Of a stretch of DNA of 64,000 nt, positions 26,408 to 53,107 are shown in pieces (the first letter of the stretch is position 1; every line of letters starts with the position of its first letter). The translations under genes were made by a program, and so were the position numbers. The notes below the pieces were generated by a model. The model was not told the origin of the DNA. It saw only the letters and a list, made by a program, of their open reading frames with translations, and searched no databases. The stretch lies in contig NZ_JAQOUE010000001.1 in assembly GCF_032191465.1 (NCBI RefSeq), positions 1,364,001-1,428,000 on the forward strand, read 5' to 3'. The stretch comes from Candidatus Nitronereus thalassa. GTDB lineage: Bacteria; Nitrospirota; Nitrospiria; Nitrospirales; UBA8639.

Positions 26408-27298
26408 ATGAACGTAGGAATTCATCACCAAAAAGGCGGGAAATTAGGGATATTATTAGGAACGGTCCTTTCCACAATTCTCCTCGGTTTGGTCACCGCT
26501 TTATATTATGAGATCTTTGTTGGCTTATGGTACGACTGGGACCATGACCCTAACTATTCACATGGGTTTATTGTTCCATTTATGTCCGTATATTTTGTTT
26601 ATGAACGATGGGGACAACTGCAAAAACTTCCACATCAGCCTCATCTGCTAGGAATTCCCGTCCTGATATTGGGAGTCGCCATGTTAGTGATTGGATCTGT
26701 TGGGGCAGAATTATTTGCCCAGCGAGTCTCCTTCATTGTGGTTATTTCAGGGCTGGTCCTACTGATATTCGGAAAACGTATACTCCTGACCCTAAGCCTT
26801 CCCCTGGTGTTTCTCCTATTTATGATTCCGCTTCCTGCCATTGTCGTGAATACTATTGCTTTCCCCCTGCAAATTTTTGCCGCTCAAACAGCATCTTTTT
26901 GCTTGTTTAACCTGGGAATTCCGGTTCTCCGGGAAGGCAACCTCATTTCTTTAGCTGGGTCGACTCTAGAAGTCGCCGAGGCCTGCAGTGGTCTTCGATC
27001 TTTGGTTGCCTTACTCGCATTGGGAACGGTGTATGCCTATTTTTCACAACGACAAATGTGGAAACGTTGGACGCTGGTCTTGCTGTCAATCCCGATCGCA
27101 ATTTTAGCCAATGCGTTTCGTGTCACGGGAACAGGGATTTTAGCCAATTATTGGGGAACGGAAGCTGCTGAAGGGTTTTATCATACGTTTGAAGGCTGGA
27201 TCGTGTTTGTGGTGGCCTTCATTCTATTGTTGGCATGCGGTACGCTCATTGGGAAAATCGGCAAACACTCACGAAGACAGTCGACAATGTCGGTCTAA
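26408..27298 (+). CDS. xrtA: Exosortase A
   Basis: This 296-residue multi-pass inner-membrane transpeptidase recognises PEP-CTERM tails and transfers or cleaves them, as sortases do in Gram-positives. The three catalytic residues are visible: Cys193 in EACSGLRSLVALL, Arg238 in ANAFRVTGTG and His259 in FYHTFEGW. About eight hydrophobic segments fit the family. epsI follows 82 bases later as a separate gene, whereas in some genomes it is fused to the exosortase. The prsK and prsR genes after it identify the XrtA subtype. No PEP-CTERM tail was found on any protein encoded in the window. Confidence 0.94.
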   Translation: MNVGIHHQKGGKLGILLGTVLSTILLGLVTALYYEIFVGLWYDWDHDPNYSHGFIVPFMSVYFVYERWGQLQKLPHQPHLLGIPVLILGVAMLVIGSVGAELFAQRVSFIVVISGLVLLIFGKRILLTLSLPLVFLLFMIPLPAIVVNTIAFPLQIFAAQTASFCLFNLGIPVLREGNLISLAGSTLEVAEACSGLRSLVALLALGTVYAYFSQRQMWKRWTLVLLSIPIAILANAFRVTGTGILANYWGTEAAEGFYHTFEGWIVFVVAFILLLACGTLIGKIGKHSRRQSTMSV

Positions 27299-27380: not shown

Positions 27381-28055
27381 ATGAAACCCTGGCCATTCGT
27401 CGTAGCCTCCTTAATATTGGTCGGAACTATTGGTCTCATCCAATCGCTTTCCCGAGGTGAGACCCCACTGACCAAGAAATCATTTTCCGAATTTCCCATG
27501 ATCCTTGCTGATCGTTGGGAAGGGAAAGAACTCCCACTTGATCAAGAGATTCTGGATATCCTGAAGGTGAGCGAATATTTGATGAGAATTTATACCCCCA
27601 AACCATCCTTGGACTCGACTGATATCGCTCCGGTCCCAGTTTCACTTTACATCGGTTACTACGAGAGCCAACGCACAGGCGCCACCTATCATTCTCCGAA
27701 AAACTGCTTACCGGGCGCCGGCTGGAGTTTTGCGGAAACGAAAATGACTTGGGTTCCTATTGGCAATAGCGGACAATCAATACTTATCAACGAAGTCCTA
27801 ATTCAAAAGGGTGTTGACAAACAACTGGTCCTATACTGGTACCATGATCGCGGGCGAGTTATCGCCAGCGAATACTGGGCAAAAGCCTATATGATTTGGG
27901 ATTCCATGACCCAAAATCGCACGGATGGTTCATTGGTCAGAATCATTGTCCCGGTCTCCGGCACCACGAAAGAGGCATTCAAACTGGGGACGACCTTTCT
28001 CAATGATATGTGGCCATCTCTGTTATCTTATATGCCTTCTTCCTCCATGACGTGA
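27381..28055 (+). CDS. epsI: EpsI family protein, exosortase-associated
   Basis: This 224-residue protein has an N-terminal membrane segment (about residues 4-22) and the EpsI/DUF3485 domain: YIGYYESQRTGATYHSPKNC, LPGAGWSF and VLYWYHDRGRVIASEYWAK. The conserved HSPKNCLPG region contains a possible active or metal site. EpsI is needed for exopolysaccharide production in the Methylobacillus system where it was named; its reaction is not known. GGAG precedes the ATG. prsK starts ten bases after its stop. Confidence 0.92.
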   Translation: MKPWPFVVASLILVGTIGLIQSLSRGETPLTKKSFSEFPMILADRWEGKELPLDQEILDILKVSEYLMRIYTPKPSLDSTDIAPVPVSLYIGYYESQRTGATYHSPKNCLPGAGWSFAETKMTWVPIGNSGQSILINEVLIQKGVDKQLVLYWYHDRGRVIASEYWAKAYMIWDSMTQNRTDGSLVRIIVPVSGTTKEAFKLGTTFLNDMWPSLLSYMPSSSMT

Positions 28056-30171: not shown

Positions 30172-31590
30172 ATGAAACCATCAGCGACCAAGACGAAGAC
30201 TGAAGTGGAAGAACAGGAATTAGAATCTTCCAAGAAAAAGAGGCCTCATCCCACACTCCTGCTTATCGAGGATGACGAAGACCTTCGACAACAAATGAAA
30301 TGGGCCCTTAGCTCCAACTACGAACTCCGAGAAGCAGTTGATAGGGCCTCCGCGGTGGAGATCGTGCAAAACGAGCCGGTCCATTTTGCTATTTTAGATC
30401 TGGGGTTGCCGCCACATGCCAACGACGCAATTGAAGGCTTAGCTGCCCTCGAAGATATGTTGTCAGTCAACCGTGATTTAAAAATTATCATGGCCACTGG
30501 CAACACCGATCGACGACATGCGCTTAAAGCCATTGAACTTGGGGCCTACGATTTTTTGGAAAAACCAGTAGATCTGGAGGTGCTCAAAGTCGTCCTCCAA
30601 CGAGCCGACTACATTCTTCGTCTTGAACGAGAAAACCGCTCTTTAAGGAAACAAGAAGATCAAACTGATTTTGAAGCCATTATCGGCACCAGCACACCGA
30701 TGCAAAAAGTATTCGAAGTCGTCAGACGAGTTGCCAAATCCGACATTTCGGTACTTGTGATCGGAGAAAGCGGCACCGGGAAGGAACTCATTGCCCGGGC
30801 GCTCCATCATCAGAGTGACCGCGCCAGGGGTCCGTTCATCGCGATCAACTGCGGCGCCATCCCAGAGAATTTGCTGGAAAGCGAATTATTCGGTCACGAA
30901 AAAGGCGCCTTTACCGGTGCCCATGCCCGCCGCAAAGGCCGCATCGAATCCGCAGACAAAGGCACATTGTTTTTAGACGAAATTGGGGAACTGCCAACAG
31001 CCTTGCAAGTAAAACTCCTCCGGGTGCTACAAGAACGATGCATCGAGCGAGTGGGAGGTCGGGAATCTATCGAAATCGATTCAAGAATTGTCGCAGCCAC
31101 CAATATTGACCTCGAAAAAGCCATGGCTCAAGGGCAATTTCGCGAAGACCTTTACTATCGGTTGAATACCGTAACGATTCCGATCCCTCCCTTAAAAGAT
31201 CGAGGGGGGGATATTATCCTACTCGCGGAACGATTTCTCCAACGCATTGCCGATGGCGCAGGGAAAAAATTTGCAGGGTTTACCAAGGAAGCCAAGATCA
31301 GTATCGAACGATATCACTGGCCCGGAAATGTCCGAGAATTGGAAAATCGCATTAAACGGGCCGTAGCCATGGCCGATGGGAACCGGATTACTCCTGAAGA
31401 CGTTCAGTTGGATTCACCAACGGTTGGATATTCAGGGTATACCCTCAAAAATGCTCGAGAAGCGGTTGAACGTGAACTCATTCAACGCACCCTGGAGAAA
31501 ACCGGTGGCAATATCACACGTGCGGCTTCTGAGCTTGGTGTCAGTCGGCCAACACTACATGAATTAATTACTCGATATTCACTTCGATAG
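30172..31590 (+). CDS. prsR: XrtA-system sigma-54 response regulator PrsR
   Basis: This 472-residue regulator has a lysine-rich leader, a receiver domain (phosphoacceptor D76 in [10 protein letters not shown]), an AAA+ domain ([32 protein letters not shown]) and a Fis-type helix-turn-helix ([20 protein letters not shown]). It matches PrsR, the partner of PrsK, which drives sigma-54 promoters of exopolysaccharide and PEP-CTERM genes. AAGGAGAG precedes the ATG. It ends the xrtA-epsI-prsK-prsR group. A second, separate NtrC-type regulator (GlrR) lies 4 kb upstream, so two sigma-54 activators flank the locus. Confidence 0.94.
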
Positions 31591-32120
31591 TTCAATTCAC
31601 ACTCTACGGCCAAAAAGGAAAGGCAACAAATAGTAATCTGCACTTATTCGAAAAGAATGAGATTACGAAACGGGACGATCATTCGTAAATCCTAATTTTT
31701 CGTTCATCCCAGTTATTATTAGATACTAGTTGAGGGTACCTTGTTATAAACAATAAGTGGATTTGAAATATTAGAAAAAACAACAATGCCTCACTAACAA
31801 TCCATCGGTTTTGTCACTATCGGCCTTTTGTTATCATCAAAACTCATTCTCCTTCTTTCCCTCTTCCAGAATTTCTAACAATTTCTTCAGCTGACCAAAT
31901 CTATTGATTTATTAGCGAAATTCCTTCTTCATTTTCCTTGAACTTGGCACAAAAGAAACAGCCTAAAAAAATAGTGCTTAAACAACCTACAAGTTCTTTC
32001 ATTAAAGTCTTTACCTTTCCCTCCGATAAAGGATGGAGCAACAGTTAGAATGATTTAATCGAGAGACAATAAACCTATTCATGCCTATGAACGATTGTTG
32101 AAACACATAGTTTTTCGGCC
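31591..32120. other. Long leader/intergenic region upstream of the riboswitch
   Basis: About 530 AT-rich bases with no credible coding frame. A TTGGCAC at 31944-31950 resembles a sigma-54 -24 element but has no matching -12 GC. The promoter of the riboswitch transcript should be in the right part, but I could not identify it with confidence. Confidence 0.5.
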
Positions 32121-32207
32121 CCTTCTCGATAACGGCAAACCCATTGTGAAATGGGGACGCAAAGCCACGGGTCAGTGAATAAACACTGATAGCCGGGTTA
32201 CCGAAGG
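32121..32207 (+). promoter_or_regulatory. Cyclic-di-GMP-I (GEMM-I) riboswitch aptamer
   Basis: The aptamer is directly recognisable. P1 pairs CCTTC (32121-32125) with GAAGG (32203-32207). After GGCAAACC comes a six-pair stem closed by a GUGA (GNRA) tetraloop (CCCATT/AATGGG). Then follow the near-invariant GACGCAAAGCCACGGG, a TCAGTG/CACTGA stem, and GCCGGGTTACCG, which carries the tetraloop receptor side and the conserved 3' strand. These are the elements of class I c-di-GMP aptamers. It lies 60 bases upstream of the giant gene's ATG on the same strand, so it should set that gene's expression in response to c-di-GMP. Confidence 0.94.
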
Positions 32208-32212
32208 AAGGG

Positions 32213-32263
32213 AAGAGCATACGCTCTCCGAGAGGATGGGGCCATCCGACTTATAAGGAGGAG
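32213..32263 (+). promoter_or_regulatory. Candidate riboswitch expression platform and ribosome binding site
   Basis: Between aptamer and ATG there are two hairpins: AGAGC-ATAC-GCTCT (32214-32227) and GGATG-GGGC-CATCC (32234-32247). An alternative pairing CTCT/AGAG (32224-32234) excludes the first. The ribosome binding site AAGGAGGAG is at 32255-32263, and CTCC at 32226-32229 could pair with its GGAG. There is no U-tract, so translational control is more likely than transcription termination. The direction of control cannot be read from sequence alone. Confidence 0.55.
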
Positions 32264-32267
32264 TCCC

Positions 32268-35200
32268 ATGTCGCACCGGAGCGTCGTTTGTACGTTTTAC
32301 GCCTTTATCATTTTTACTCTTCTCACCCTATTCCCCTTCCAAGTTTTTGGTGCGAATGATGGAGAAGTTAGCCTCACATGGAATTTAAATGGTGAGTCGG
32401 ATATTTTTTCCTACAACCTCTACTTTGGAACTCAGTCGGGAAATTATAATGCCCCAGGCTCTCCCATCTCCATAACGCACCCGCAAAATTCTACCACTGT
32501 AACCAGACTTCAAACTGGACAAGAATACTTTTTCGCCCTAACGGCTATTGATCAAGCTGGACTTCAGAGTCCACCCAGTGATGAAATTAGTACCGTCGTA
32601 CCCGGTAGCATTGCCGACACCACGCCCCCAAGCACCCCGGTCCTGCAATCGGCGGTAGCGAATTCTTCCACGCAAGCCACGCTGACCTGGGCGGCCGCTA
32701 CTGATAATGTCGGGGTCACGGGCTATACCCTCTATCGCGACAATAATCCGATCACTACCACGTCGAACCTGACGTTTGTCGATACCACGCTCTCCCCCGA
32801 CACCACCTATGACTACTTCGTGATGGCTCATGACGCGGCAAACAATTCGTCAGGCGCGTCTGCTCCCATGGCAGTAACTACCACCAGTGCTGGTGATAGC
32901 TCACCGGTCGTCGCGTGGAAAGCCCCTGATCAAAATCCGGGGGGCGCGTGGATAAACTCGGGCTGGGATAATCGTACCTTCCGCATCTTGCTCGATGGCG
33001 ACTCCATCACCCGCTCGGGCTCCACGATCCAGCTTACCCTTCAAGGACGCTCCTCCGGCAGTTATACACTTCAACGCGTTTCGCTCGTACAACGAGATGG
33101 CAATACCCTCAATGGAGTGGATACGAGTTCCCGGCAGGTGACCTTTGGTGGGTCATGGAACTCCGGCGTCACGGTCCCCGCCGGCCAGACCGTCACCAGC
33201 GATCCTATTGCCTTTGATTTGGTCGCGGGCCAGGATGTGTTTCTCACCTTCTGGGCACCAGCGGGACAGCCTACAGCCTATTACACCATTTACACCACAG
33301 GCACGAACACCTCCGCATGGGTCATTCAGGGTGCGGACCAGAGCTCAGCGATTGATTGGGAAAGTTTCAACATCCCCTCTGGGCAGACAAGACCATATAT
33401 CTATACGGCCGCAACCCTGGAAGTGCTCAGCTCTGGGGGAACTCCCGCGGATACCACGCCGCCGAGTGTGACATCGATTACGTCTGCGGTAGCGGACTCC
33501 GCCACGCAAGCCACCCTCACGTGGGCTCCAGCTACCGATAACGTGGGGGTCACCGGCTATACCCTCTATCGCAACAATAATCCCATCACCACCACGGCGA
33601 ACTTGTCCTACGTGGATGCGCAACTTTCTCCCTCGACCACCTATGCCTATACCGTGGTGGCTCATGATGCTGAGGAGAATACCTCTGCCTCGTCGGCGGC
33701 GGCCTCCGTCACAACACCCGCACTGCCCGATACCACCCCACCGAGCACTCCGATCATGCAATCAGCGGTGGCTAACTCCTCAACGCAAGCCACACTTACG
33801 TGGTCGGCGGCCACGGATAACGTCGGCGTCACTGGCTATACCCTCTATCGCGACAACAACCCGGTCACCACCACGGCGAACTTATCCTACGTGGATTCTC
33901 AGCTTTCACCTTCGACCACCTATGCCTATACCGTGGTGGCTCACGATGCTGAAAACAACGATTCCGCTCCCTCGACTGCAGCCTCTGTAACTACTGCGGC
34001 TCCTGCCGACACCACGCCCCCAAGCACCCCGGTCCTGCAATCGGCGGTAGCGAATTCTTCCACGCAAGCCACGCTGACCTGGGCGGCCGCTACTGATAAT
34101 GTCGGGGTCACGGGCTATACCCTCTATCGCGACAATAATCCGATCACTACCACGTCGAACCTGACGTTTGTCGATACCACGCTCTCCCCCGACACCACCT
34201 ATGACTACTTCGTGATGGCTCATGACGCGGCAAACAATTCGTCAGGCGCGTCTGCTCCCATGGCAGTAACTACCACCAGTGCTGGTGATAGCTCACCGGT
34301 CGTCGCGTGGAAAGCCCCTGATCAAAATCCGGGGGGCGCGTGGATAAACTCGGGCTGGGATAATCGTACCTTCCGCATCTTGCTCGATGGCGACTCCATC
34401 ACCCGCTCGGGCTCCACGATCCAGCTTACCCTTCAAGGACGCTCCTCCGGCAGTTATACACTTCAACGCGTTTCGCTCGTACAACGAGATGGCAATACCC
34501 TCAATGGAGTGGATACGAGTTCCCGGCAGGTGACCTTTGGTGGGTCATGGAACTCCGGCGTCACGGTCCCCGCCGGCCAGACCGTCACCAGCGATCCTAT
34601 TGCCTTTGATTTGGTCGCGGGCCAGGATGTGTTTCTCACCTTCTGGGCACCAGCGGGACAGCCTACAGCCTATTACACCATTTACACCACAGGCACGAAC
34701 ACCTCCGCATGGGTCATTCAGGGTGCGGACCAGAGCTCAGCGATTGATTGGGAAAGTTTCAACATCCCCTCTGGGCAGACAAGACCATATATCTATACGG
34801 CCGCAACCCTGGAAGTGCTCAGCTCTGGGGGAACTCCCGCGGATACCACGCCGCCGAGTGTGACATCGATTACGTCTGCGGTAGCGGACTCCGCCACGCA
34901 AGCCACCCTCACGTGGGCTCCAGCTACCGATAACGTGGGGGTCACCGGCTATACCCTCTATCGCAACAATAATCCCATCACCACCACGGCGAACTTGTCC
35001 TACGTGGATGCGCAACTTTCTCCCTCGACCACCTATGCCTATACCGTGGTGGCTCATGATGCTGAGGAGAATACCTCTGCCTCGTCGGCGGCGGCCTCCG
35101 TCACAACACCCGCACTGCCCGATACCACCCCACCGAGCACTCCGATCATGCAATCAGCGGTGGCTAACTCCTCAACGCAAGCCACACTTACGTGGTCGGC

Positions 35201-38200
35201 GGCCACGGATAACGTCGGCGTCACTGGCTATACCCTCTATCGCGACAACAACCCGGTCACCACCACGGCGAACTTATCCTACGTGGATTCTCAGCTTTCA
35301 CCTTCGACCACCTATGCCTATACCGTGGTGGCTCACGATGCTGAAAACAACGATTCCGCTCCCTCGACTGCAGCCTCTGTAACTACTGCGGCTCCTGCCG
35401 ACACCACGCCCCCAAGCACCCCGGTCCTGCAATCGGCGGTAGCGAATTCTTCCACGCAAGCCACGCTGACCTGGGCGGCCGCTACTGATAATGTCGGGGT
35501 CACGGGCTATACCCTCTATCGCGACAATAATCCGATCACTACCACGTCGAACCTGACGTTTGTCGATACCACGCTCTCCCCCGACACCACCTATGACTAC
35601 TTCGTGATGGCTCATGACGCGGCAAACAATTCGTCAGGCGCGTCTGCTCCCATGGCAGTAACTACCACCAGTGCTGGTGATAGCTCACCGGTCGTCGCGT
35701 GGAAAGCCCCTGATCAAAATCCGGGGGGCGCGTGGATAAACTCGGGCTGGGATAATCGTACCTTCCGCATCTTGCTCGATGGCGACTCCATCACCCGCTC
35801 GGGCTCCACGATCCAGCTTACCCTTCAAGGACGCTCCTCCGGCAGTTATACACTTCAACGCGTTTCGCTCGTACAACGAGATGGCAATACCCTCAATGGA
35901 GTGGATACGAGTTCCCGGCAGGTGACCTTTGGTGGGTCATGGAACTCCGGCGTCACGGTCCCCGCCGGCCAGACCGTCACCAGCGATCCTATTGCCTTTG
36001 ATTTGGTCGCGGGCCAGGATGTGTTTCTCACCTTCTGGGCACCAGCGGGACAGCCTACAGCCTATTACACCATTTACACCACAGGCACGAACACCTCCGC
36101 ATGGGTCATTCAGGGTGCGGACCAGAGCTCAGCGATTGATTGGGAAAGTTTCAACATCCCCTCTGGGCAGACAAGACCATATATCTATACGGCCGCAACC
36201 CTGGAAGTGCTCAGCTCTGGGGGAACTCCCGCGGATACCACGCCGCCGAGTGTGACATCGATTACGTCTGCGGTAGCGGACTCCGCCACGCAAGCCACCC
36301 TCACGTGGGCTCCAGCTACCGATAACGTGGGGGTCACCGGCTATACCCTCTATCGCAACAATAATCCCATCACCACCACGGCGAACTTGTCCTACGTGGA
36401 TGCGCAACTTTCTCCCTCGACCACCTATGCCTATACCGTGGTGGCTCATGATGCTGAGGAGAATACCTCTGCCTCGTCGGCGGCGGCCTCCGTCACAACA
36501 CCCGCACTGCCCGATACCACCCCACCGACGGTCAGCATCACCGCCCCAACTTCAGGGGCCACCGTGCAAGGCACGGTGACGGTGACGGCCACGGCCTCCG
36601 ATAATGTTGGCGTCCTCGGCGTCCAGTTCCAACTAGATGGCCAGAACCTCGGGAATGAAGATACAACCAATACCTATAGTGCCGCGTGGGATACTTCGGC
36701 CACCTCGGCCGGCCCCCACACCCTCACAGCCATCGTCCGTGATGCCGCCGGCAATTCCACTACCTCGTCTCCTGTGATAATCACCATTGATAACGGAGGA
36801 AATTCCACAAACCCCGGTCCTTTGGCCATCACCAATCTCCAGGCACAAAGCGGAAAATCCTATCTTATTGGCCAGGCGCCAATCGCCAACAACCAAATTG
36901 TCTACATCGATCGTTGGTATACGTTCGACGTGATTCCCTCTGTCCTCACGGGTGCCACCTATATCCAAACCGCCAATGATGATAATGGTTCAACCACGGA
37001 CACCTTCCTAAGCTTTGATGTCAATCAACCCGTCACCGTCTACGTCGCTCACGACGACCGAATGACCACCAAACCTGCCTGGCTGAACACCTACACAGAG
37101 ACCGGACAATCTTTACAGTTGCCGTACACGACATTGCACATCTATAGGCGCACCTTCCCCGCTGGCACCGTCACGTTAGGCGGCAATAGAATCGGTCCAG
37201 GGGAATTCACCATGTACACCGTCGCCGTGAAACCCGAAACGGCACAGGTCCAAGACACCACGCCGCCCAGTGTGCCGTCAATTACTTCCGCCGTAGCCAA
37301 CTCTGCCAACCAAGCCACCCTCTCCTGGGCGGCCGCCACGGATAACGTCGGCGTCACCGGGTATACGCTGTATCGCGACAACAATCCGATCACCACCACG
37401 TCAAATTTGTCCTATGTCGATAGCAACTTAGCTCCGGCCTCCACCTATGCCTATACGGTCAGTGCGCAGGATGCGCAGAATAATGTTTCGGCTAAAAGTC
37501 CAAGCCTTTCGGTCACAACACACCCAGATTCACCTTCAGAACCGCCAGGAGCCCCTATTATTCAAGCAGTCCAACCGAATTCTGATTCACAGATGACTAT
37601 TACCTGGACGCCAGCTATAAATGAGGTTTTAGCGGGGGTTGAAGGTTCGGTTAACCTTGGATCGCAAGCCTATTGCCCGACTCTAGACCCACCGAACACA
37701 AGTCAACCTATTTTATCCATTGCCAGCGGTGATGTCAGTGACCTTCTCTCGAAAGTCTCATCAGCCCAACCTGGATCTACGATTCTACTTGCCGATGGAG
37801 TATATGCTCTACAGTCAAATCAATCCCTATCAATCAATACACCCGGCTTGACCATACGAAGCGCTTCAGGAAATCGTGAAGGGGTGAAAATTAGTGGGGG
37901 ATACAACAACATTACAGTTAAGGTGGATGACATTACCATTGCGGATGTAACATTGGATCAACCCACCAACCACAATATTCAAGTTCAGGGAGAATTGGGA
38001 ATCACGGGAACTAAGATTTACAATGTTCATATGCTGGATGCCGGCCAACAGTTTGTAAAAATAAGTGCGGGTGATGGCACTAACGGAAAGTTTGCAGACA
38101 ACGGTCTTGTGGCCTGTTCATTGATCGAGTATTCGACCTTCTCCAAAGGGACAAGCATATCCCCTCCCAGTTACACGAACGGAGTCGATTTACTCGCAGG

Positions 38201-40208
38201 AAAAGGATGGGTAGTTCGAGACAATGAATTTCGTCGAATTCGAAGTGAAGCCGGCCCAGCCGGCCCAGCAATCCTCGTATGGAAGAACTCTATAGATACT
38301 ATCATTCGGAGAAATTTAATTGTCGATAGTTGGAGGGGCATTGCTTTGGGATTAAGTGCTCCCAATTACCTATCCCGTGGTGGGGCCGGTGTCATCTACG
38401 ATCACCAAAATGGGCTTGTGGAAAATAACGTGATACTAGCCCTGAATGAACCTGCGGATGCCGCCATTGAGAATAATTACGCCCTAAATTCTCAAGTTCG
38501 ACATAACACAGTTTATTATAGTCCGGCTCTTTCTCATTCCGTGAGTTGGTCTATTGAATATCGTTTTGAGCCAACGACCGTGTCCCTGATTTCCAATTTA
38601 ACCAACCTTCCTATTCTTGCTCGCAGTCCTCAACCTACCCAAGAAGGTATGTTGCAGGGAAATATCACCGATGCTCAAGCCAACTGGTTCATCGACATCG
38701 GAACTGAACAATATCATCTTGCTCAAAATTCTCAAGCAGCCGCAGCCGTGACCTTTACTCTATATCGCGATGGTATACCGGTGGGAAGCACCACCTCGTG
38801 GAGTTACCAAGATTCATACTTGTCACCCTCGACCCTCTATAACTATACAGTGACAGCCCTCAGCGCCGGAGGCGAAGAATCTTCTCCCTCTAGCCCGGTT
38901 TCTGGGACTACTCTCGCACCGCAGGATTCTACCTACCCGCAGGTGGCAATTACCTCACCAGGGGCAGGAGAAATAGTTTCGGGAATTGTCACGGTATCTG
39001 CCACCGCCTCAGACAACATTAGCGTCCTCGGCGTCCAATTCCAACTAGATGGCCAGAACCTCGGGAATGAAGATACAACCAATACCTATAGTGCCGCGTG
39101 GGATACTTCGGCCACCTCGGCCGGCCCCCACACCCTCACAGCCATCGTCCGTGATGCCGCCGGCAATTCCACTACCTCGTCTCCTGTGATAATCACCATT
39201 GATAACGGAGGAAATTCCACAAACCCCGGTCCTTTGGCCATCACCAATCTCCAGGCACAAAGCGGAAAATCCTATCTTATTGGCCAGGCGCCAATCGCCA
39301 ACAACCAAATTGTCTACATCGATCGTTGGTATACGTTCGACGTGATTCCCTCTGTCCTCACGGGTGCCACCTATATCCAAACCGCCAATGATGATAATGG
39401 TTCAACCACGGACACCTTCCTAAGCTTTGATGTCAATCAACCCGTCACCGTCTACGTCGCTCACGACGACCGAATGACCACCAAACCTGCCTGGCTGAAC
39501 ACCTACACAGAGACCGGACAATCTTTACAGTTGCCGTACACGACATTGCACATCTATAGGCGCACCTTCCCCGCTGGCACCGTCACGTTAGGCGGCAATA
39601 GAATCGGTCCAGGGGAATTCACCATGTACACCGTCGCCGTAAAACCGGACGCGGCCCAGGTGCAAGACACCACGCCGCCGAGTGTCACCTCGATTAGCTC
39701 GCTGGTGGCCAATTCCGCCACCCAAGCCACCCTCTCCTGGGCCGCCGCCACTGATAATGTCGGTGTCGCAGGGTATAACATCTATCGCAATGGAATATTA
39801 CTCTCTACCACACCGGCATTAAACTATGTCGATTCGGGGTTAAACCCCTCGACGACTTATGACTATTCAGTTCAAGCCCTGGATGCTGCGGGAAATATTG
39901 CCGCCTTGTCATCTCCTAGCTCGGTGACCACCCCCAACCAGGGTTCGACCGGTAATGGAGGAACCGCCACATTATCTTGGCAGAAAAACACTGAAAATGA
40001 CTTGATGCTTTATATGGTGTATTACGGTACGGTTTCTCAGGTCTATGATCAATCCATTAATGTCGGCCTTACAACTACGCCCAATACCCCAAGTTATACA
40101 ATTACGGGATTAGCAGCAGGAACTTATTACTTTACCGTGCGAGCTGTGGATACTGCTGGGAATGCCGGACCAGCGGCTGCAGAAGCTGTAAAGGTCATAA
40201 TCAATTAA
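32268..40208 (+). CDS. Giant secreted multi-FnIII protein with nested beta-helix, c-di-GMP riboswitch controlled
   Basis: This 2646-residue protein has a signal peptide (about 1-28), so it is exported by Sec. Map: FnIII (30-112); repeat unit copies at 117-580, 581-1044 and 1045-1421. Each full unit is FnIII, a beta-sandwich of about 185 residues (opening VVAWKAPDQNPGG), FnIII, FnIII; copy 3 lacks the last FnIII. Then an Ig-like domain (1421-1510), module X (about 1511-1660), FnIII, an FnIII split around a beta-helix (1787-2159), Ig-like and module X again, and two FnIII domains. There is no sortase, PEP-CTERM or outer-membrane anchor at the C-terminus (ends VKVIIN). AAGGAGGAG precedes the ATG. 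It is probably a matrix protein or adhesin; the beta-helix could bind or cleave polysaccharide. Confidence 0.93.
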   Translation: MSHRSVVCTFYAFIIFTLLTLFPFQVFGANDGEVSLTWNLNGESDIFSYNLYFGTQSGNYNAPGSPISITHPQNSTTVTRLQTGQEYFFALTAIDQAGLQSPPSDEISTVVPGSIADTTPPSTPVLQSAVANSSTQATLTWAAATDNVGVTGYTLYRDNNPITTTSNLTFVDTTLSPDTTYDYFVMAHDAANNSSGASAPMAVTTTSAGDSSPVVAWKAPDQNPGGAWINSGWDNRTFRILLDGDSITRSGSTIQLTLQGRSSGSYTLQRVSLVQRDGNTLNGVDTSSRQVTFGGSWNSGVTVPAGQTVTSDPIAFDLVAGQDVFLTFWAPAGQPTAYYTIYTTGTNTSAWVIQGADQSSAIDWESFNIPSGQTRPYIYTAATLEVLSSGGTPADTTPPSVTSITSAVADSATQATLTWAPATDNVGVTGYTLYRNNNPITTTANLSYVDAQLSPSTTYAYTVVAHDAEENTSASSAAASVTTPALPDTTPPSTPIMQSAVANSSTQATLTWSAATDNVGVTGYTLYRDNNPVTTTANLSYVDSQLSPSTTYAYTVVAHDAENNDSAPSTAASVTTAAPADTTPPSTPVLQSAVANSSTQATLTWAAATDNVGVTGYTLYRDNNPITTTSNLTFVDTTLSPDTTYDYFVMAHDAANNSSGASAPMAVTTTSAGDSSPVVAWKAPDQNPGGAWINSGWDNRTFRILLDGDSITRSGSTIQLTLQGRSSGSYTLQRVSLVQRDGNTLNGVDTSSRQVTFGGSWNSGVTVPAGQTVTSDPIAFDLVAGQDVFLTFWAPAGQPTAYYTIYTTGTNTSAWVIQGADQSSAIDWESFNIPSGQTRPYIYTAATLEVLSSGGTPADTTPPSVTSITSAVADSATQATLTWAPATDNVGVTGYTLYRNNNPITTTANLSYVDAQLSPSTTYAYTVVAHDAEENTSASSAAASVTTPALPDTTPPSTPIMQSAVANSSTQATLTWSAATDNVGVTGYTLYRDNNPVTTTANLSYVDSQLSPSTTYAYTVVAHDAENNDSAPSTAASVTTAAPADTTPPSTPVLQSAVANSSTQATLTWAAATDNVGVTGYTLYRDNNPITTTSNLTFVDTTLSPDTTYDYFVMAHDAANNSSGASAPMAVTTTSAGDSSPVVAWKAPDQNPGGAWINSGWDNRTFRILLDGDSITRSGSTIQLTLQGRSSGSYTLQRVSLVQRDGNTLNGVDTSSRQVTFGGSWNSGVTVPAGQTVTSDPIAFDLVAGQDVFLTFWAPAGQPTAYYTIYTTGTNTSAWVIQGADQSSAIDWESFNIPSGQTRPYIYTAATLEVLSSGGTPADTTPPSVTSITSAVADSATQATLTWAPATDNVGVTGYTLYRNNNPITTTANLSYVDAQLSPSTTYAYTVVAHDAEENTSASSAAASVTTPALPDTTPPTVSITAPTSGATVQGTVTVTATASDNVGVLGVQFQLDGQNLGNEDTTNTYSAAWDTSATSAGPHTLTAIVRDAAGNSTTSSPVIITIDNGGNSTNPGPLAITNLQAQSGKSYLIGQAPIANNQIVYIDRWYTFDVIPSVLTGATYIQTANDDNGSTTDTFLSFDVNQPVTVYVAHDDRMTTKPAWLNTYTETGQSLQLPYTTLHIYRRTFPAGTVTLGGNRIGPGEFTMYTVAVKPETAQVQDTTPPSVPSITSAVANSANQATLSWAAATDNVGVTGYTLYRDNNPITTTSNLSYVDSNLAPASTYAYTVSAQDAQNNVSAKSPSLSVTTHPDSPSEPPGAPIIQAVQPNSDSQMTITWTPAINEVLAGVEGSVNLGSQAYCPTLDPPNTSQPILSIASGDVSDLLSKVSSAQPGSTILLADGVYALQSNQSLSINTPGLTIRSASGNREGVKISGGYNNITVKVDDITIADVTLDQPTNHNIQVQGELGITGTKIYNVHMLDAGQQFVKISAGDGTNGKFADNGLVACSLIEYSTFSKGTSISPPSYTNGVDLLAGKGWVVRDNEFRRIRSEAGPAGPAILVWKNSIDTIIRRNLIVDSWRGIALGLSAPNYLSRGGAGVIYDHQNGLVENNVILALNEPADAAIENNYALNSQVRHNTVYYSPALSHSVSWSIEYRFEPTTVSLISNLTNLPILARSPQPTQEGMLQGNITDAQANWFIDIGTEQYHLAQNSQAAAAVTFTLYRDGIPVGSTTSWSYQDSYLSPSTLYNYTVTALSAGGEESSPSSPVSGTTLAPQDSTYPQVAITSPGAGEIVSGIVTVSATASDNISVLGVQFQLDGQNLGNEDTTNTYSAAWDTSATSAGPHTLTAIVRDAAGNSTTSSPVIITIDNGGNSTNPGPLAITNLQAQSGKSYLIGQAPIANNQIVYIDRWYTFDVIPSVLTGATYIQTANDDNGSTTDTFLSFDVNQPVTVYVAHDDRMTTKPAWLNTYTETGQSLQLPYTTLHIYRRTFPAGTVTLGGNRIGPGEFTMYTVAVKPDAAQVQDTTPPSVTSISSLVANSATQATLSWAAATDNVGVAGYNIYRNGILLSTTPALNYVDSGLNPSTTYDYSVQALDAAGNIAALSSPSSVTTPNQGSTGNGGTATLSWQKNTENDLMLYMVYYGTVSQVYDQSINVGLTTTPNTPSYTITGLAAGTYYFTVRAVDTAGNAGPAAAEAVKVIIN
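32616..34007 (+). repeat. 1392-bp in-frame tandem repeat, copy 1
   Basis: First full unit (464 codons) inside the giant gene. It begins at GACACCACGCCCCC and encodes FnIII, a beta-sandwich module and two further FnIII domains. I found no base difference from copy 2 in the blocks compared. Confidence 0.95.
34008..35399 (+). repeat. 1392-bp in-frame tandem repeat, copy 2
   Basis: Second full unit, head to tail with copy 1 at an offset of exactly 1392 bases. It appears identical at the nucleotide level, which points to recent duplication or ongoing gene conversion. Confidence 0.95.
35400..36528 (+). repeat. 1392-bp tandem repeat, copy 3 (truncated after 1129 bases)
   Basis: Third unit, matching copies 1 and 2 until 36528, where the sequence switches from the third FnIII of the unit to an Ig-like domain. 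The break falls just after DTTPP, the linker that opens each FnIII, consistent with recombination at a shared linker. Confidence 0.93.
36610..37228 (+). repeat. 619-bp dispersed repeat in the giant gene, copy A
   Basis: Encodes the end of an Ig-like domain and module X (WYTFDVIPSVLTGATY, VTVYVAHDDRMTT). It matches copy B at 39022-39640 with a single difference seen near the left end. Offset 2412 bases, in frame. Confidence 0.92.
39022..39640 (+). repeat. 619-bp dispersed repeat in the giant gene, copy B
   Basis: Second copy of the block at 36610-37228, lying downstream of the beta-helix. Outside the block the two Ig-like domains are clearly diverged, so the match is not simply due to domain family. 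Confidence 0.92.
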
Positions 40209-40808
40209 ATTGGGAGAAGAGGCTAATCTCCAGCCCTTTTTCTCGACATACCAAGTCAGTATATGAATGGGAGTATTTGGGTAAGAGGATCTGGGCCACA
40301 TGGCTAGCTTCGTAGTTGCTGTTTTGAAAGCGCTGGATTGTTGTAGCAATCCAGCGCCTTCAATTTCAGATCATATATTCTTCATTGGCGACACAACCGA
40401 CCAAGTTTATGGCAAACCATTTTGACGGGACATTTTCAGCACACTGATAGCTGGTGCCTCCCTGAGCGCAGGATAGAAATTGGAATAGAATGACCACCAC
40501 CCAACGAAGTTGGATTCAACGATAAATGACTAGCTCTTATGGATTTAGCAATAGACCCCTGTTTGGAATTCCAAAGCGGCATACAAGGAGAGTTAGTTGT
40601 TGCAAAATGAATTCCTAGAATTAATGAGCTCATCACATCTTGACCTTACTCCTTATCCTCCAAACTTTTCGATAATTTTAATGTTGACTAGGATGATTTT
40701 TTTCTCCTTCAAGTCTTCCCCCTAAATTTGACAAAAACCCATCCAACCAAAACAGGATACAAAGCTATTTTTAAGTCGCTGGTTGGACGACGAGGTCATT
40801 TCACACGA
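40209..40808. other. Intergenic region between giant gene and convergent GT-C-like gene
   Basis: 600 AT-rich bases between convergent genes. It contains the long hairpin listed separately and, just after the giant gene, GGAGA/TCTCC (40213-40231) followed by CTTTTTCT, a weak terminator candidate. No coding frame is convincing. Confidence 0.5.
40324..40363. terminator. Long perfect-stem hairpin, possible bidirectional terminator
   Basis: GCGCTGGATTG (40330-40340) and CAATCCAGCGC (40347-40357) form a perfect 11-pair stem with a six-base loop, extended by five more pairs (TTGAA/TTCAA) after one mismatch. It lies between convergent genes, 120 bases after the giant gene's stop. The following bases are only mildly T-rich, so termination is inferred from position and stability. 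Confidence 0.5.
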
Positions 40809-42866: not shown

Positions 42867-44120
42867 TTAATTCACAGTTAAACCCTGAACAGCAACGGGT
42901 GGAGTAGTATCAGATAATCCTCCGCCATCATGAGTCAAAGTAAATACATGGACCATGAGGGGACTCCCCTCTCGATGTTCTGTCACAAAAACACGTTGTG
43001 TCGCAGGATCATAAGCACCCCCAATCTTTGATTTATATGTTGTGGGGGCAAAAGGAAGTAGCAGCCGCCAAATCTCGTAAGGAGTAACATCCCAAGGTTC
43101 CACTTCACCATTCTTTGCTTTAAGTAAGTCTAGTGCATCATAGGCCCAAATTTGCGTCACATAAGGATACGCATGATTCCCTTTATAATCCCCTATCGGA
43201 TCATTGCATTCCGTAGGAGTTCCATAACAAAAAGGGCCAACCCCTTGCTGACCGAAAAATAATACCGTCCGGCTGTTGCGGGGAAATACCACTCCTTTAA
43301 CTTCGGATGTTCCATTAAAAATTGTACTTTCTTCTCCCCACTCATCAAGAGGATGTGTAGCGGGATAATACACAAGCGGTGTAGCAGGGACAGGATCTTG
43401 TTGCCCGAGATCAGCAGGATTAAAAACAAATGCCGCAGGGCCATAAGAACTACGACTAATGATTGAAATGCAGCAATTCCCCGTGAGGGCAGGACCACCA
43501 AAAGCCATTTGCCATTCGAGGGGAATATGCCCCATATATCCTGAAACGGTTCCTGCCATTTCCACATCTAACTTATACATTCCTTGAGCGTCACCTTGCT
43601 CAGACATATTTAAAGAGGAGGAAAAATGAGAAAACACTTGACTCCTATCTGCATCATAGTAGTCATAGGCTGTGCCATAGAGCTTATTGTTTAATACTAG
43701 TAGTCCACCAACATTAATTTTTCCATCATCCACAGTATACATTTTCCCTTCAGATGGATCGACAAAAGGCTGTAGGACAGAAGCAATAGGAAGGTTACTT
43801 TCTTCCGTTGTGATCACAGGATTCGGAATGCTTACTTCTGCGACCATTTGATGGTGATCATGCCCAACAAGAAAAAGCGAATCATTTCCAGGGTTATATG
43901 TTGCCACAGTCATAGCATAGCCAAAATTTGATCCTCCAATCGGACCAGGTGGCATTCGGAAGGACCCTTCAAATTTAAGGTGTCCTTGGTTCAACAAAAC
44001 AGCAGATTCCGGCACAGCAGCATATACTTTATTAATATTTAAATGCCCCCCCCATAGAGCCAAAGCAAGAAACCCCAGGATTCTCAAAGCCCTACCAAAG
44101 TTATATTTGGGTGTCATCAT
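42867..44120 (-). CDS. Secreted beta-rich protein of unknown function ending in an FnIII stub
   Basis: This 417-residue protein opens with a signal peptide (about 1-34, cleavage likely after KVYA). The mature part is rich in short beta-strand segments, with many Gly, Tyr and Asn (SLFLVGHDHHQMVAEVSIPNP, KLYGTAYDYYDADRSQ), and looks like a beta-propeller. It ends in SDTTPPVAVQGLTVN, which resembles the DTTPP linker opening each FnIII domain of the giant protein, then stops. The ATG at 44120 has GGAGG seven bases upstream; an in-frame ATG at 44180 would add 20 charged residues before the signal peptide. No function can be assigned. Confidence 0.75.
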   Translation of the reverse strand: MMTPKYNFGRALRILGFLALALWGGHLNINKVYAAVPESAVLLNQGHLKFEGSFRMPPGPIGGSNFGYAMTVATYNPGNDSLFLVGHDHHQMVAEVSIPNPVITTEESNLPIASVLQPFVDPSEGKMYTVDDGKINVGGLLVLNNKLYGTAYDYYDADRSQVFSHFSSSLNMSEQGDAQGMYKLDVEMAGTVSGYMGHIPLEWQMAFGGPALTGNCCISIISRSSYGPAAFVFNPADLGQQDPVPATPLVYYPATHPLDEWGEESTIFNGTSEVKGVVFPRNSRTVLFFGQQGVGPFCYGTPTECNDPIGDYKGNHAYPYVTQIWAYDALDLLKAKNGEVEPWDVTPYEIWRLLLPFAPTTYKSKIGGAYDPATQRVFVTEHREGSPLMVHVFTLTHDGGGLSDTTPPVAVQGLTVN

Positions 44121-51152: not shown

Positions 51153-51866
51153 TTAACTAGACAGTAATTGTTGCAGCCCACGAAATGAGGAAATATTTTC
51201 TTCAGAAACGGAGCCTTGGGACGGCCGCTGAAAGGTTCCACCAACCATCATGCATGGCATACCTGCGGCCAATGCACCTTTCCCATCAACCTCTGGACGA
51301 TCTCCAACATACAACACCTCTTGGGGTGGCAGCCCCCAACATTCACATGCTCGAAGAAAACCCCGTGGGTGTGGCTTAAAGGCATTAATTTCTTTATCTG
51401 TGGCACATAACACCAGCTGCACAAATGATTCGAGCTCTAGGGCTTCAAGTTTCTCTTGTGCTGGATAATCAGAAAACACGCCAATTTTTATTCCCCTACG
51501 TTGGGCTTCTGTAAAAAATGAGATGGCGCCCATTCGTCGACACCATTTGAGATATTTTAAGGGGCGATGATACATCCATTCCTCAACGATACGCTTCACT
51601 TCCTCGGCCTTTACTCCAACCACCTTGGATGCTTGTTGGTATTGTATCTCCTTTAGACACTCCGACGGATTTCCAAGATGGCGAAGTTCTTCCCGAATAG
51701 TCCGAAACTGTTTAATGACTTCCAGGACAGAACGAGTTTTGGCCAAGGACCCCATGGTCAATGGCAAAGTGCTCAGCTCAAAGCCCATTAACATACGAAG
51801 TGGTGGCTGGTAATAGAGGGTACCGTCCAAATCAAAGAGAATGGCTCGTACTTTTGAAATATCCAT
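51153..51866 (-). CDS. HAD superfamily hydrolase
   Basis: This 237-residue haloacid-dehalogenase-type phosphatase has motif I as ILFDLDGTLYY (D12 nucleophile, D14), motif II in IGVFSDYPAQ, motif III near NAFKPHPRGF (Lys) and motif IV as VLYVGDRPEVDGKGALAAGM. A helical cap lies between motifs I and II. It likely acts on a sugar phosphate or related small substrate. Its position among glycosyltransferases suggests a role in sugar-nucleotide supply, but that is inferred from neighbours only. Confidence 0.88.
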   Translation of the reverse strand: MDISKVRAILFDLDGTLYYQPPLRMLMGFELSTLPLTMGSLAKTRSVLEVIKQFRTIREELRHLGNPSECLKEIQYQQASKVVGVKAEEVKRIVEEWMYHRPLKYLKWCRRMGAISFFTEAQRRGIKIGVFSDYPAQEKLEALELESFVQLVLCATDKEINAFKPHPRGFLRACECWGLPPQEVLYVGDRPEVDGKGALAAGMPCMMVGGTFQRPSQGSVSEENISSFRGLQQLLSS

Positions 51867-51955
51867 GAAGGGTAACCTTCGCCTGCCTGGGCATTCCAGG
51901 GCTCAAATCCTAGAGAACTCGAATTTCATCCCGTCCATCTGCAAAAATCTTGGTT

Positions 51956-53107
51956 TTAAGCACATTCCGTCGAACAAATAAGTGGATCATGAAACACTCC
52001 CAACGTACGAAGAGTTTCATGGTACTCCTGAATCATCGCCTGCTGACGAAATCGTTGAACCACAAGACTCCTTCCTGCCTGGCCCATCTGCGATCGTACC
52101 TGTGGATCTCTAAGCTGTAACAATGCTTCGGCTAATTGTTTCGACGCGTGGTCAATCTCACTGACGAACCCAGCTTCCTGCCCTTGAAGAATAGCGGGAA
52201 TCTCTCCCACCGCCGTAGCCACTATAGGGAGACCGACAGACATAGCCTCCAACATGCTCATGGGCATTTGTTCGCGCAAAGACGTGAGGATAAAGACATC
52301 CATGGCTCGGAGATAGGCCACAACATTTTCTTGCTGTCCTACGCAGAGAATTCGACCTCGGAACATTGGACGAGTACATGCCTGTTCGATAAGACCCCGA
52401 TCGGGACCATCACCAATAAACAATAGTTTAAAATTCTGTTCCTGTTCAAGACTGTTCTCAAAAACTTTGAGAAGCAACGAAAGGTTTTTCACGGGATCCA
52501 GCCTTCCCACAAATCCGACAACAATATCCTGGGTGGATAAACCTAACATCTGCCTCATCTGTTCGCGCTCAAACCTATCCCCTGAGAAATACTCCGTATT
52601 GATCCCATTAGGGATAAAGAGCACTCGTGCAGACGCCAATCCCAATTGATCCTCCATCATCTTTTGAAGATCAGTGGAGACCACGACGAGCCTTGAAGCC
52701 AATCGGTAAACTACAAATCGAATGACATTCCGCTTCCAGAGGGTGGAGGTCGCCTCATCAACGTTAAACCCATGTTCACTATGAATGATATGAGGGATGC
52801 CCGCCAAGCGACCTAACCAGATAGCGTCAGTCGCACCCCAATTATAAGTCATGAGCACTGTCGGATGAGATTGCCGAAGTGCTTGAAACAGTGAGCGAAA
52901 AAATGGAAAATTTTCTTGAGGCTTCGTGAAGTTCACGAATCTGATATGCTTTCTACGAATCCATTTCTCCGCGCCTCGATCTTCTGTCAAGGACAAGATT
53001 TCCTGGTCGATATGATCAGGGAGTGAATTCATGACTGAGCAAAGCACCTTTTCCATCCCCCCCATTCCAAAGGATGGAACGACATGCAATATCTTCACAC
53101 TCATCAT
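51956..53107 (-). CDS. Glycosyltransferase, GT4 type
   Basis: This 383-residue GT-B glycosyltransferase opens with ILHVVPSFGMGGMEKVLCSV, the glycine-rich acceptor loop typical of GT4 proteins at XrtA loci. IIHSEHGFNVDEAT, VVGFVGRLDPVKNLSLLL and the motif DVFILTSLREQMPMSMLEAMSVGLPIVATAVG follow. The last carries the glutamates that bind the donor. It would add a sugar from a nucleotide donor to the growing repeat unit in the cytoplasm. It could start at either of two adjacent ATGs. Confidence 0.9.
   Translation of the reverse strand: MMSVKILHVVPSFGMGGMEKVLCSVMNSLPDHIDQEILSLTEDRGAEKWIRRKHIRFVNFTKPQENFPFFRSLFQALRQSHPTVLMTYNWGATDAIWLGRLAGIPHIIHSEHGFNVDEATSTLWKRNVIRFVVYRLASRLVVVSTDLQKMMEDQLGLASARVLFIPNGINTEYFSGDRFEREQMRQMLGLSTQDIVVGFVGRLDPVKNLSLLLKVFENSLEQEQNFKLLFIGDGPDRGLIEQACTRPMFRGRILCVGQQENVVAYLRAMDVFILTSLREQMPMSMLEAMSVGLPIVATAVGEIPAILQGQEAGFVSEIDHASKQLAEALLQLRDPQVRSQMGQAGRSLVVQRFRQQAMIQEYHETLRTLGVFHDPLICSTECA

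What the first reader, a model, noticed from the sequence alone, without database searches (positions are those of the whole stretch)
32121..40208. A class I c-di-GMP riboswitch directly controls a 2646-residue secreted FnIII protein at an exosortase A locus
Seen: a complete GEMM-I aptamer 60 bases upstream of the ATG, a signal peptide, and more than ten FnIII or Ig-like modules. Established: this riboswitch class senses c-di-GMP, the messenger for the sessile state, and FnIII-rich giants often act as matrix proteins or adhesins. Inference: this is a c-di-GMP-controlled matrix protein produced together with the XrtA/PrsK/PrsR polysaccharide. I know of no described example of this pairing in Nitrospirota.
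Basis: partly seen in the sequence, partly recalled or inferred. Interest (0 to 1): 0.85.

Follow-up and report, generated by a model that had tools for sequence, protein, structure and literature searches.

The report
Flagellar-promoter, riboswitch-controlled secreted polysaccharide-binding giant

Summary
In detail: a complete c-di-GMP-I aptamer (32125-32206; 73-77 bits) lies 61 nt before the ATG of a 2646-aa secreted protein, 0.5 kb after prsR at an XrtA/EpsI/PrsK/PrsR locus. The pairing is not a one-off: 30 of 105 aptamers examined in relatives (18 genomes) stand 78 nt or less upstream of secreted proteins that begin with the same FnIII domain. In genus g9 they sit on the other flank of the same XrtA block.

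The "sessile matrix protein" reading is weakened. (1) A textbook sigma-28 promoter (32003-32029) lies 122 nt before the aptamer; near-consensus sigma-28 sites precede 29 of 31 FnIII aptamers and 50 of 106 in all (0.9 expected from shuffles). A FliA/WhiG paralogue is itself behind a c-di-GMP-I aptamer. (2) Besides FnIII/Ig the protein has three esterase-type CBMs, two GH2-tail modules and a beta-helix of polysaccharide-lyase/epimerase fold, free-standing in a relative's EPS cluster. (3) Competing helices in the leader predict translation OFF at high c-di-GMP; this sign is modelled, not shown.

Best reading: a motile-phase secreted polysaccharide-binding/processing protein, silenced as c-di-GMP rises. 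A new regulatory variant of known parts; untested experimentally.

The parts
32003..32029 (+). sigma-28 (FliA/WhiG-type) promoter TAAAGTCT-N11-TCCGATAA, 122 nt (start to start) before the aptamer
   Evidence: only exact match in the window (0.04 expected); 4 in the 4.0-Mb genome, reversed control 0; same site at 122-130 nt in 10 relatives' FnIII loci; shuffles
32117..32124 (+). leader GGCCCCUU: pairs either with 32208-32212 (P1 extension) or with element S (32236-32243, antisequestor helix)
   Evidence: duplex and partition-function calculations
32125..32206 (+). c-di-GMP-I riboswitch aptamer (RF03167/RF01051); ligand-contact nucleotides by Vc2 numbering G20=32135, A47=32162, C92=32201 all canonical for c-di-GMP
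   Evidence: numbering from own knowledge of Vc2
32236..32243 (+). element S (AUGGGGCC): pairs with leader (antisequestor) or with the RBS/start codon (sequestor)
32255..32270 (+). Shine-Dalgarno AAGGAGG and ATG, sequestered by S in the full-length fold
32268..40208 (+). 2646-aa secreted multimodular protein (signal peptide, FnIII, Ig-like, CBM-like, GH2-tail-like, beta-helix)
32612..36528 (+). perfect tandem repeat, 1392-bp (464-aa) unit, 2.8 copies
   Evidence: 2525 bp identical at offset 1392
32892..33443 (+). CBM-like module copy 1 (copies 2 and 3 at 34284-34835 and 35676-36227)
   Evidence: phmmer 7tog E 0.002; AlphaFold model, Foldseek 7tok CBM domain of FjoAcXE E 1.5e-5 and 7tog E 4e-7
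36789..37250 (+). module like the C-terminal tail of GH2 beta-galactosidase 6hpd (second copy about 39201-39662)
   Evidence: phmmer E 1.4e-9
37539..38915 (+). FnIII domain split by the beta-helix insertion
   Evidence: reading of the sequence; insertion geometry not confirmed by the model (low pLDDT outside the helix)
37626..38744 (+). right-handed beta-helix, polysaccharide lyase/epimerase fold
   Evidence: 57% identical to a free-standing secreted protein in the EPS cluster of a relative; structure matches
40330..40357 (+). terminator-like hairpin after the gene
   Evidence: pattern match; overall count not above shuffles
26408..27298 (+). exosortase A (XrtA)
   Evidence: TIGR03109 223 bits over 208
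27381..28055 (+). EpsI
   Evidence: TIGR02914
28066..30135 (+). PrsK
   Evidence: TIGR02916 359 over 300
30172..31590 (+). PrsR
   Evidence: TIGR02915 605 over 503
51153..53107 (-). HAD-type hydrolase and glycosyltransferase, adjacent here; in relative G017/J031 the beta-helix gene lies between their homologues

Best explanation
A motile-phase secreted protein with two locks. RNA polymerase with a sigma-28-type factor (FliA, or the second FliA/WhiG paralogue that is itself behind a c-di-GMP-I aptamer) transcribes the gene from 32003-32029. In the leader, at low c-di-GMP, the sequence just 5' of the aptamer pairs with element S, which leaves the ribosome-binding site free: ON. When c-di-GMP binds, P1 and its extension hold the leader, S is free and pairs with the Shine-Dalgarno/start region: OFF. 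The protein is exported by its signal peptide, binds polysaccharide through CBM-like modules on an FnIII/Ig scaffold, and cleaves or epimerises it with its beta-helix; the likely substrate is the exopolysaccharide made next door. Shown: aptamer, gene, modules, recurrence, locus linkage. Strongly supported by sequence: sigma-28-type promoter. Modelled: the three competing helices and the OFF sign. Inferred: enzymatic activity, substrate and dispersal/motility role.
For: Aptamer. Exact sigma-28 consensus, 1 in window and 4 in genome; at 122-130 nt in 10 FnIII loci of relatives; exact motif before 15 of 106 aptamers against 0.11 in shuffles and 0 for the reversed control; near motif 50 against 0.92, including 29 of 31 FnIII aptamers. 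The genome is flagellated by gene content (flagellins, FliA 269 bits). Second FliA/WhiG (205 bits, cut-off 190) directly behind an aptamer with a terminator. In Nitrospiraceae the aptamer precedes a flagellar rod gene with a sigma-28 site 39 nt upstream, 3 of 3 examined. Switch: leader:S better than 198 or more of 200 shuffles in 7 of 13 intact FnIII leaders, and WIN 4/200; compensatory leader:S changes (GGCCCC/GGGGCC, GGUUCC/GGAGCC, GAACUCC/GGAGUUC), 119 paired against 109 when partners are swapped, 12 of 500; for transcripts ending 32245-32262 the ligand-free model has P1 0.00-0.01 and leader:S about 11 bp, while a -4.5 kcal bonus on P1 gives P1 0.38-0.92 and -8 kcal 0.99-1.00. Terminator-type aptamers of the family also pair the terminator 5' arm with aptamer P2, an OFF arrangement. 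Beta-helix: Foldseek 6kfn alginate lyase E 5e-7, chondroitinase B E 7e-6, RbmB E 2e-4; VIA Z 27-30. CBM.
Against: At equilibrium the full-length RNA folds the S:RBS hairpin with or without P1 (SD open 0.37 in both states), so the OFF sign rests on co-transcriptional kinetics. In some relatives (G021, G025, G039_C26) leader:S partly persists with P1, which would blur or reverse the sign. S:RBS itself is not significantly better than swapped partners (414 of 5000). The near sigma-28 pattern was widened after seeing the loci (the exact textbook one was not). Genome-wide exact matches are hardly above the control in other genomes, so it is the position, not the count, that is informative. Beta-helix folds also occur in non-enzymes (PfbA, tailspikes); mean pLDDT 61. 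Three other giants in the genome carry the CBM without aptamer or sigma-28 site.
Confidence: 0.55

Rival explanations
1. One reading: an ON switch makes a matrix protein or adhesin in sessile, high-c-di-GMP cells together with the XrtA polysaccharide.
For: Proximity to XrtA/PrsK/PrsR and EPS genes, conserved in g9; CBM and FnIII modules suit matrix binding; class I switches can be ON (Bc2 upstream of cap, PMC6366702); leader:S can coexist with P1 in some relatives.
Against: Sigma-28 promoter; folding of the window leader favours OFF; lyase/epimerase-type beta-helix; sigma-28 paralogue and flagellar rod gene share the same switch class.
Confidence: 0.25
2. The protein is a coat or adhesin of swimming cells (motile-phase surface protein used on first contact with a polysaccharide surface) and the beta-helix is a binding platform, not an enzyme.
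For: Sigma-28 promoter; multi-CBM architecture; beta-helix adhesin PfbA among structural matches; paralogous giants without riboswitch.
Against: The free-standing homologue is encoded inside an EPS cluster, where EPS lyases and epimerases are usual; best matches are lyases and epimerases.
Confidence: 0.25
3. The aptamer senses another cyclic dinucleotide (3',3'-cGAMP variant).
For: Rfam's best family by E-value is the variant family c-di-GMP-I-GGC.
Against: RF01051 scores more bits (77.3 against 73.3); the position that distinguishes cGAMP aptamers (G20 to A; own knowledge) is G at 32135; the J2/3 sequence is the canonical GACGCAAAGCC.
Confidence: 0.03
4. The riboswitch is a relic: the tandem-repeat expansion made a neutral giant and the platform no longer switches.
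For: Perfect 1392-bp repeats show recent expansion; equilibrium SD access does not change.
Against: Aptamer is the best-scoring of the genome; leader:S, S and promoter all kept, with the layout shared by relatives.
Confidence: 0.1

Closest known systems
Vc2 (Vibrio cholerae) translational OFF class I riboswitch (PMC9262584)
   Same: class I aptamer; P1 stability decides RBS exposure; ligand closes translation
   Different: Vc2 precedes a regulator gene (own knowledge: tfoX-like); here a sigma-28-transcribed secreted giant with a leader:S antisequestor
Clostridioides difficile Cd1-flgB/SigD circuit (PMC6366702)
   Same: class I c-di-GMP OFF switch controls a sigma-28-type factor and so its regulon
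   Different: there sigD lies in the flgB operon; here a second FliA/WhiG gene has its own aptamer and the sigma-28-type promoters drive transcripts that carry further aptamers
Bdellovibrio attack-phase regulon (PMC3627812)
   Same: FliA promoters TTAAG-N16-CCGATA control many non-flagellar surface genes; a c-di-GMP-riboswitch RNA (merRNA) is expressed in the motile phase
   Different: merRNA has no downstream gene; here the aptamers regulate in cis
RbmB, VPS lyase of V. cholerae (PMC11637428; structures 9ozd/9ozl)
   Same: secreted beta-helix encoded at an EPS locus; RbmB acts in biofilm dispersal
   Different: 9-12% identity; here fused into a 2646-aa multi-CBM protein; activity untested
Bc2-cap of Bacillus thuringiensis (PMC6366702)
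   Same: class I switch in front of a surface adhesin
   Different: Bc2 is a transcriptional ON switch

Membership tests
c-di-GMP-I riboswitch (RF01051/RF03167) | covariance model score above gathering | tested here: met
   73.3 (59) and 77.3 (35) bits
c-di-GMP-I riboswitch (RF01051/RF03167) | canonical ligand-contact nucleotides G20, A47, C92 | tested here: met
   read from sequence; numbering from own knowledge
c-di-GMP-I riboswitch (RF01051/RF03167) | binds c-di-GMP | not testable with these tools
   needs in-line probing
translational OFF riboswitch | mutually exclusive helices linking P1 to RBS sequestration | tested here: inconclusive
   present in the window model; equilibrium SD access unchanged; partial coexistence in some relatives
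sigma-28 (FliA/WhiG) promoter | TAAAGTTT-N11-GCCGATAA | tested here: met
   exact TAAAG and CCGATAA with N15 between them
sigma-28 (FliA/WhiG) promoter | transcription start and sigma dependence | not testable with these tools
   -
PEP-CTERM/exosortase substrate | C-terminal PEP motif, TM helix and basic tail | tested here: not met
   C-terminus ...AAAEAVKVIIN; no PEP-CTERM model hit in NCBIfam scan
XrtA system locus | XrtA, EpsI, PrsK, PrsR over cut-offs | tested here: met
polysaccharide lyase/epimerase (PL6/AlgE/RbmB type) | right-handed beta-helix fold | tested here: met
polysaccharide lyase/epimerase (PL6/AlgE/RbmB type) | family sequence signature or catalytic residues | tested here: inconclusive
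   no Pfam hit for the window domain at E<1; weak Beta_helix in homologues; catalytic set not mapped
CBM of acetyl-xylan esterases (FjoAcXE, PbeAcXE) | fold and sequence similarity | tested here: met
   (model pLDDT 61)
CBM of acetyl-xylan esterases (FjoAcXE, PbeAcXE) | sugar binding | not testable with these tools
   -

The most novel reading that the evidence does not exclude
A family-wide two-tier c-di-GMP circuit: a riboswitch-controlled sigma-28 paralogue transcribes a regulon whose mRNAs (secreted FnIII/CBM proteins, Tad pili, response-regulator clusters) carry their own c-di-GMP-I riboswitches. It forms a feed-forward loop that shuts a motile/dispersal secretome, including an EPS-directed beta-helix enzyme encoded beside the exosortase locus, as c-di-GMP rises.
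Probability: 0.35. Interest if true: 0.8.

Novelty: new variant of a known kind. Interest (0 to 1): 0.6.

Why it matters
Riboswitch and flagellar sigma factor are usually studied as separate arms of the swim/stick decision. Here they are stacked on the same transcripts, in many related genomes, on genes for giant secreted polysaccharide-binding proteins next to exopolysaccharide loci. If true it gives Nitrospirota, environmentally important but hard to manipulate, a readable c-di-GMP regulon, a testable OFF-switch layout with a leader antisequestor, and a candidate EPS-processing enzyme. It also warns against inferring 'matrix' from FnIII plus c-di-GMP.

Tried and rejected
Sigma-54 (PrsR) promoter before the giant: TTGGCAC at 31944 lacks a -12 GC at the right spacing (read by eye), and no sigma-70 site stood out (7 found, 9.1 expected), so dropped. 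Equilibrium folding with P1 forced or forbidden: does not discriminate. First leader:S swap test over all 68 located aptamers was spoiled by unusable locator hits (mean energies nonsense); replaced. PEP-CTERM substrate idea: no tail. Conserved gene-level orthology of the giant: the beta-helix has one relative in 49 family genomes and the CBM none outside this genome in 296 phylum genomes, so the giant is not conserved as a whole; only the promoter-aptamer-SP-FnIII head is. I first took the gene behind the 1572671 aptamer for a chemoreceptor; it is a BrxC/BrxD-type ATPase. Papers on c-di-GMP-I-GGC or on c-di-GMP riboswitches in Nitrospira/Nitrospirae: none found in the held library.
Full report
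WHAT IS THERE. The window holds one Rfam match, a full c-di-GMP-I aptamer at 32125-32206 (RF03167 73.3 bits; RF01051 77.3 bits). It is followed after 61 nt by the ATG of a 2646-aa ORF with AAGGAGG in front. The aptamer keeps the canonical c-di-GMP contacts (G20, A47, C92 by Vc2 numbering, own knowledge). Upstream lie XrtA, EpsI, PrsK and PrsR, all above curated cut-offs; downstream runs an exopolysaccharide gene cluster. The genome has six further c-di-GMP-I aptamers. Two lie in tandem before a Tad pilus operon; one before a FliA/WhiG sigma factor; one before response regulators; one before a BrxC/BrxD-type ATPase with a kinase and response regulator; one before small proteins.

THE PROTEIN. 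Beyond FnIII and Big_7 it contains three copies of a 184-aa module inside a 1392-bp unit repeated without a mismatch. That module resembles the CBM domain of acetyl-xylan esterases by sequence (7tog, E 0.002) and by fold (7tok CBM domain of FjoAcXE E 1.5e-5, 7tog E 4e-7). Two modules match the tail of a GH2 beta-galactosidase (6hpd, E 1.4e-9). A beta-helix (aa 1787-2159) interrupts an FnIII. The beta-helix has a 57% identical relative in the same family (G017, which matches the record Nitrospirae bacterium J031). There it is a free-standing 462-aa protein with a signal-peptide-like N-terminus, encoded between a glycosyltransferase and a HAD gene of the EPS cluster; homologues of those two genes are adjacent in the window at 51153-53107. 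The AlphaFold model (mean pLDDT 61, about 90 in the first half of the helix) matches alginate lyases, chondroitinase B, mannuronan epimerases and RbmB. The CBM module occurs in three other giants of the same genome that have no aptamer, and nowhere else among 296 phylum genomes searched.

THE PAIRING RECURS. In 49 genomes of the family, 33 carry c-di-GMP-I aptamers; the 14 genomes of genus g2 have none. I read the genes behind 105 aptamers of relatives. Thirty stand 78 nt or less before a secreted protein whose first domain is this FnIII, in 18 genomes of four genera besides the window's own. Outside the family, four canonical aptamers in families f16, f29 and f31 also precede FnIII-first proteins. 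In G021 and G025 the aptamer-FnIII gene, with a second FnIII gene, lies next to the same argJ-PrsR-PrsK-EpsI-XrtA-regulator-kinase block, but at the other end of it; G022 has an FnIII gene and an aptamer in the same place near a contig end. Linkage within 12 kb in 3 of 7 genomes has a random-placement probability of about 8e-5 (genomes related, so indicative only).

THE PROMOTER. At 32003-32029 stands TAAAGTCT-N11-TCCGATAA, the sigma-28 consensus: 1 match in the window against 0.04 expected, 4 in the genome, none for the reversed pattern. The exact site recurs at 122-130 nt before the aptamer in ten FnIII loci of three genera besides the window's and at 72 nt in an eleventh. Before all 106 aptamers, the exact N15 motif occurs in 15 (0.11 in shuffles, 0 reversed). 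A relaxed motif, widened after seeing the loci, occurs in 50 (0.92 in shuffles, maximum 3), including 29 of 31 FnIII loci, several Tad loci and response-regulator loci. The relaxed motif agrees with the experimentally mapped FliA consensus of Bdellovibrio, TTAAG-N16-CCGATA (PMC3627812). The genome has flagellins, chemotaxis genes and FliA, and a second FliA/WhiG factor behind a c-di-GMP-I aptamer followed by an intrinsic terminator. In Nitrospiraceae the aptamer with a sigma-28 site 39 nt upstream precedes a flagellar rod protein in 3 of 3 loci examined.

THE SWITCH. Three helices compete. P1 extends into the leader (CCCUU with AAGGG). The leader (GGCCCC) also pairs with S (GGGGCC), and S pairs with the SD/start region. 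Leader:S beats shuffles in most members (for example 0 of 200 in three, 4 of 200 in the window) and shows compensatory changes, including a Tad locus of the same genome (GAGAACUCC/GGAGUUCUC; 119 paired against 109 with swapped partners, 12 of 500). S:RBS is stable and conserved but not statistically covarying. For transcripts ending at 32245-32262 the ligand-free ensemble has P1 near 0 and about 11 leader:S pairs; a P1 bonus of -4.5 to -8 kcal restores P1 and reduces leader:S, most clearly at 32250-32255. Once the RBS is made, S:RBS forms in every case, with SD openness 0.37 regardless. So the model is kinetic: ligand present, P1 locked, S sequesters the RBS, OFF; ligand absent, leader:S, RBS open, ON. 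In some relatives leader:S partly survives P1, so the sign is not certain. The terminator-type aptamers of the family support OFF logic: in most of 24, the terminator 5' arm is complementary to aptamer P2. Class I OFF switches on translation (Vc2, PMC9262584) and on a sigma-28 operon (Cd1, PMC6366702) are precedents.

INTERPRETATION. The most economical reading is a sigma-28-transcribed, c-di-GMP-repressed secretome. Its member at 32268-40208 binds and probably processes polysaccharide, likely the EPS of the neighbouring cluster, as RbmB does for VPS (PMC11637428). The sessile-matrix reading remains possible if the sign is ON. No step has been tested at the bench.

SCORES. Aptamer real 0.99; pairing recurrent 0.97; sigma-28-type promoter 0.85; OFF sign 0.6; beta-helix acts on EPS 0.45; whole statement 0.55. 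Interest 0.6.

Noticed in passing
genome C1:732134-733118 (L010): Second FliA/WhiG sigma factor (205 bits) directly behind a c-di-GMP-I aptamer and terminator; the arrangement recurs in many relatives (proteins with ...EFLPMIRRIAG...).
   Followed up: partly
genome C1:1571171-1574273 (L007/L012); L139: c-di-GMP-I aptamer before a BrxC/BrxD-type ATPase, a histidine kinase and a response regulator; same in G027.
   Followed up: partly
genome C1:275023 and 275582 (L009): Two c-di-GMP-I aptamers about 560 nt apart before a Tad pilus operon, with a small ORF between them.
   Followed up: no
L163, L170, L172 (Nitrospiraceae): Aptamer before a flagellar rod protein with a sigma-28 site 39 nt upstream.
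   Followed up: partly
window 60419-63055 -: 878-aa protein with PcRGLX-like (rhamnogalacturonan-lyase-like) domains inside the EPS cluster.
   Followed up: no
genome C1:570277-573471, 580420-580950, 980615-984370: Three more giant proteins with the 184-aa CBM-like module (58-63% identical), no aptamer or sigma-28 site.
   Followed up: partly
window 42867-44180 -: 437-aa secreted-looking protein that ends just as an FnIII-type linker (DTTPPVAVQGLTVN) begins; perhaps truncated.
   Followed up: no
L144, L147, L160, L161, L164, L169: In other Nitrospirota families RF03167 matches have GCCAAACC...GACGGAAAGC in place of GGCAAACC...GACGCAAAGCC, before other kinds of genes; possibly the true variant class.
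   Followed up: no
genus g2 of the family (14 genomes): No c-di-GMP-I aptamers and almost no exact sigma-28 motifs; genomes of 2-3 Mb; a natural contrast group.
   Followed up: no
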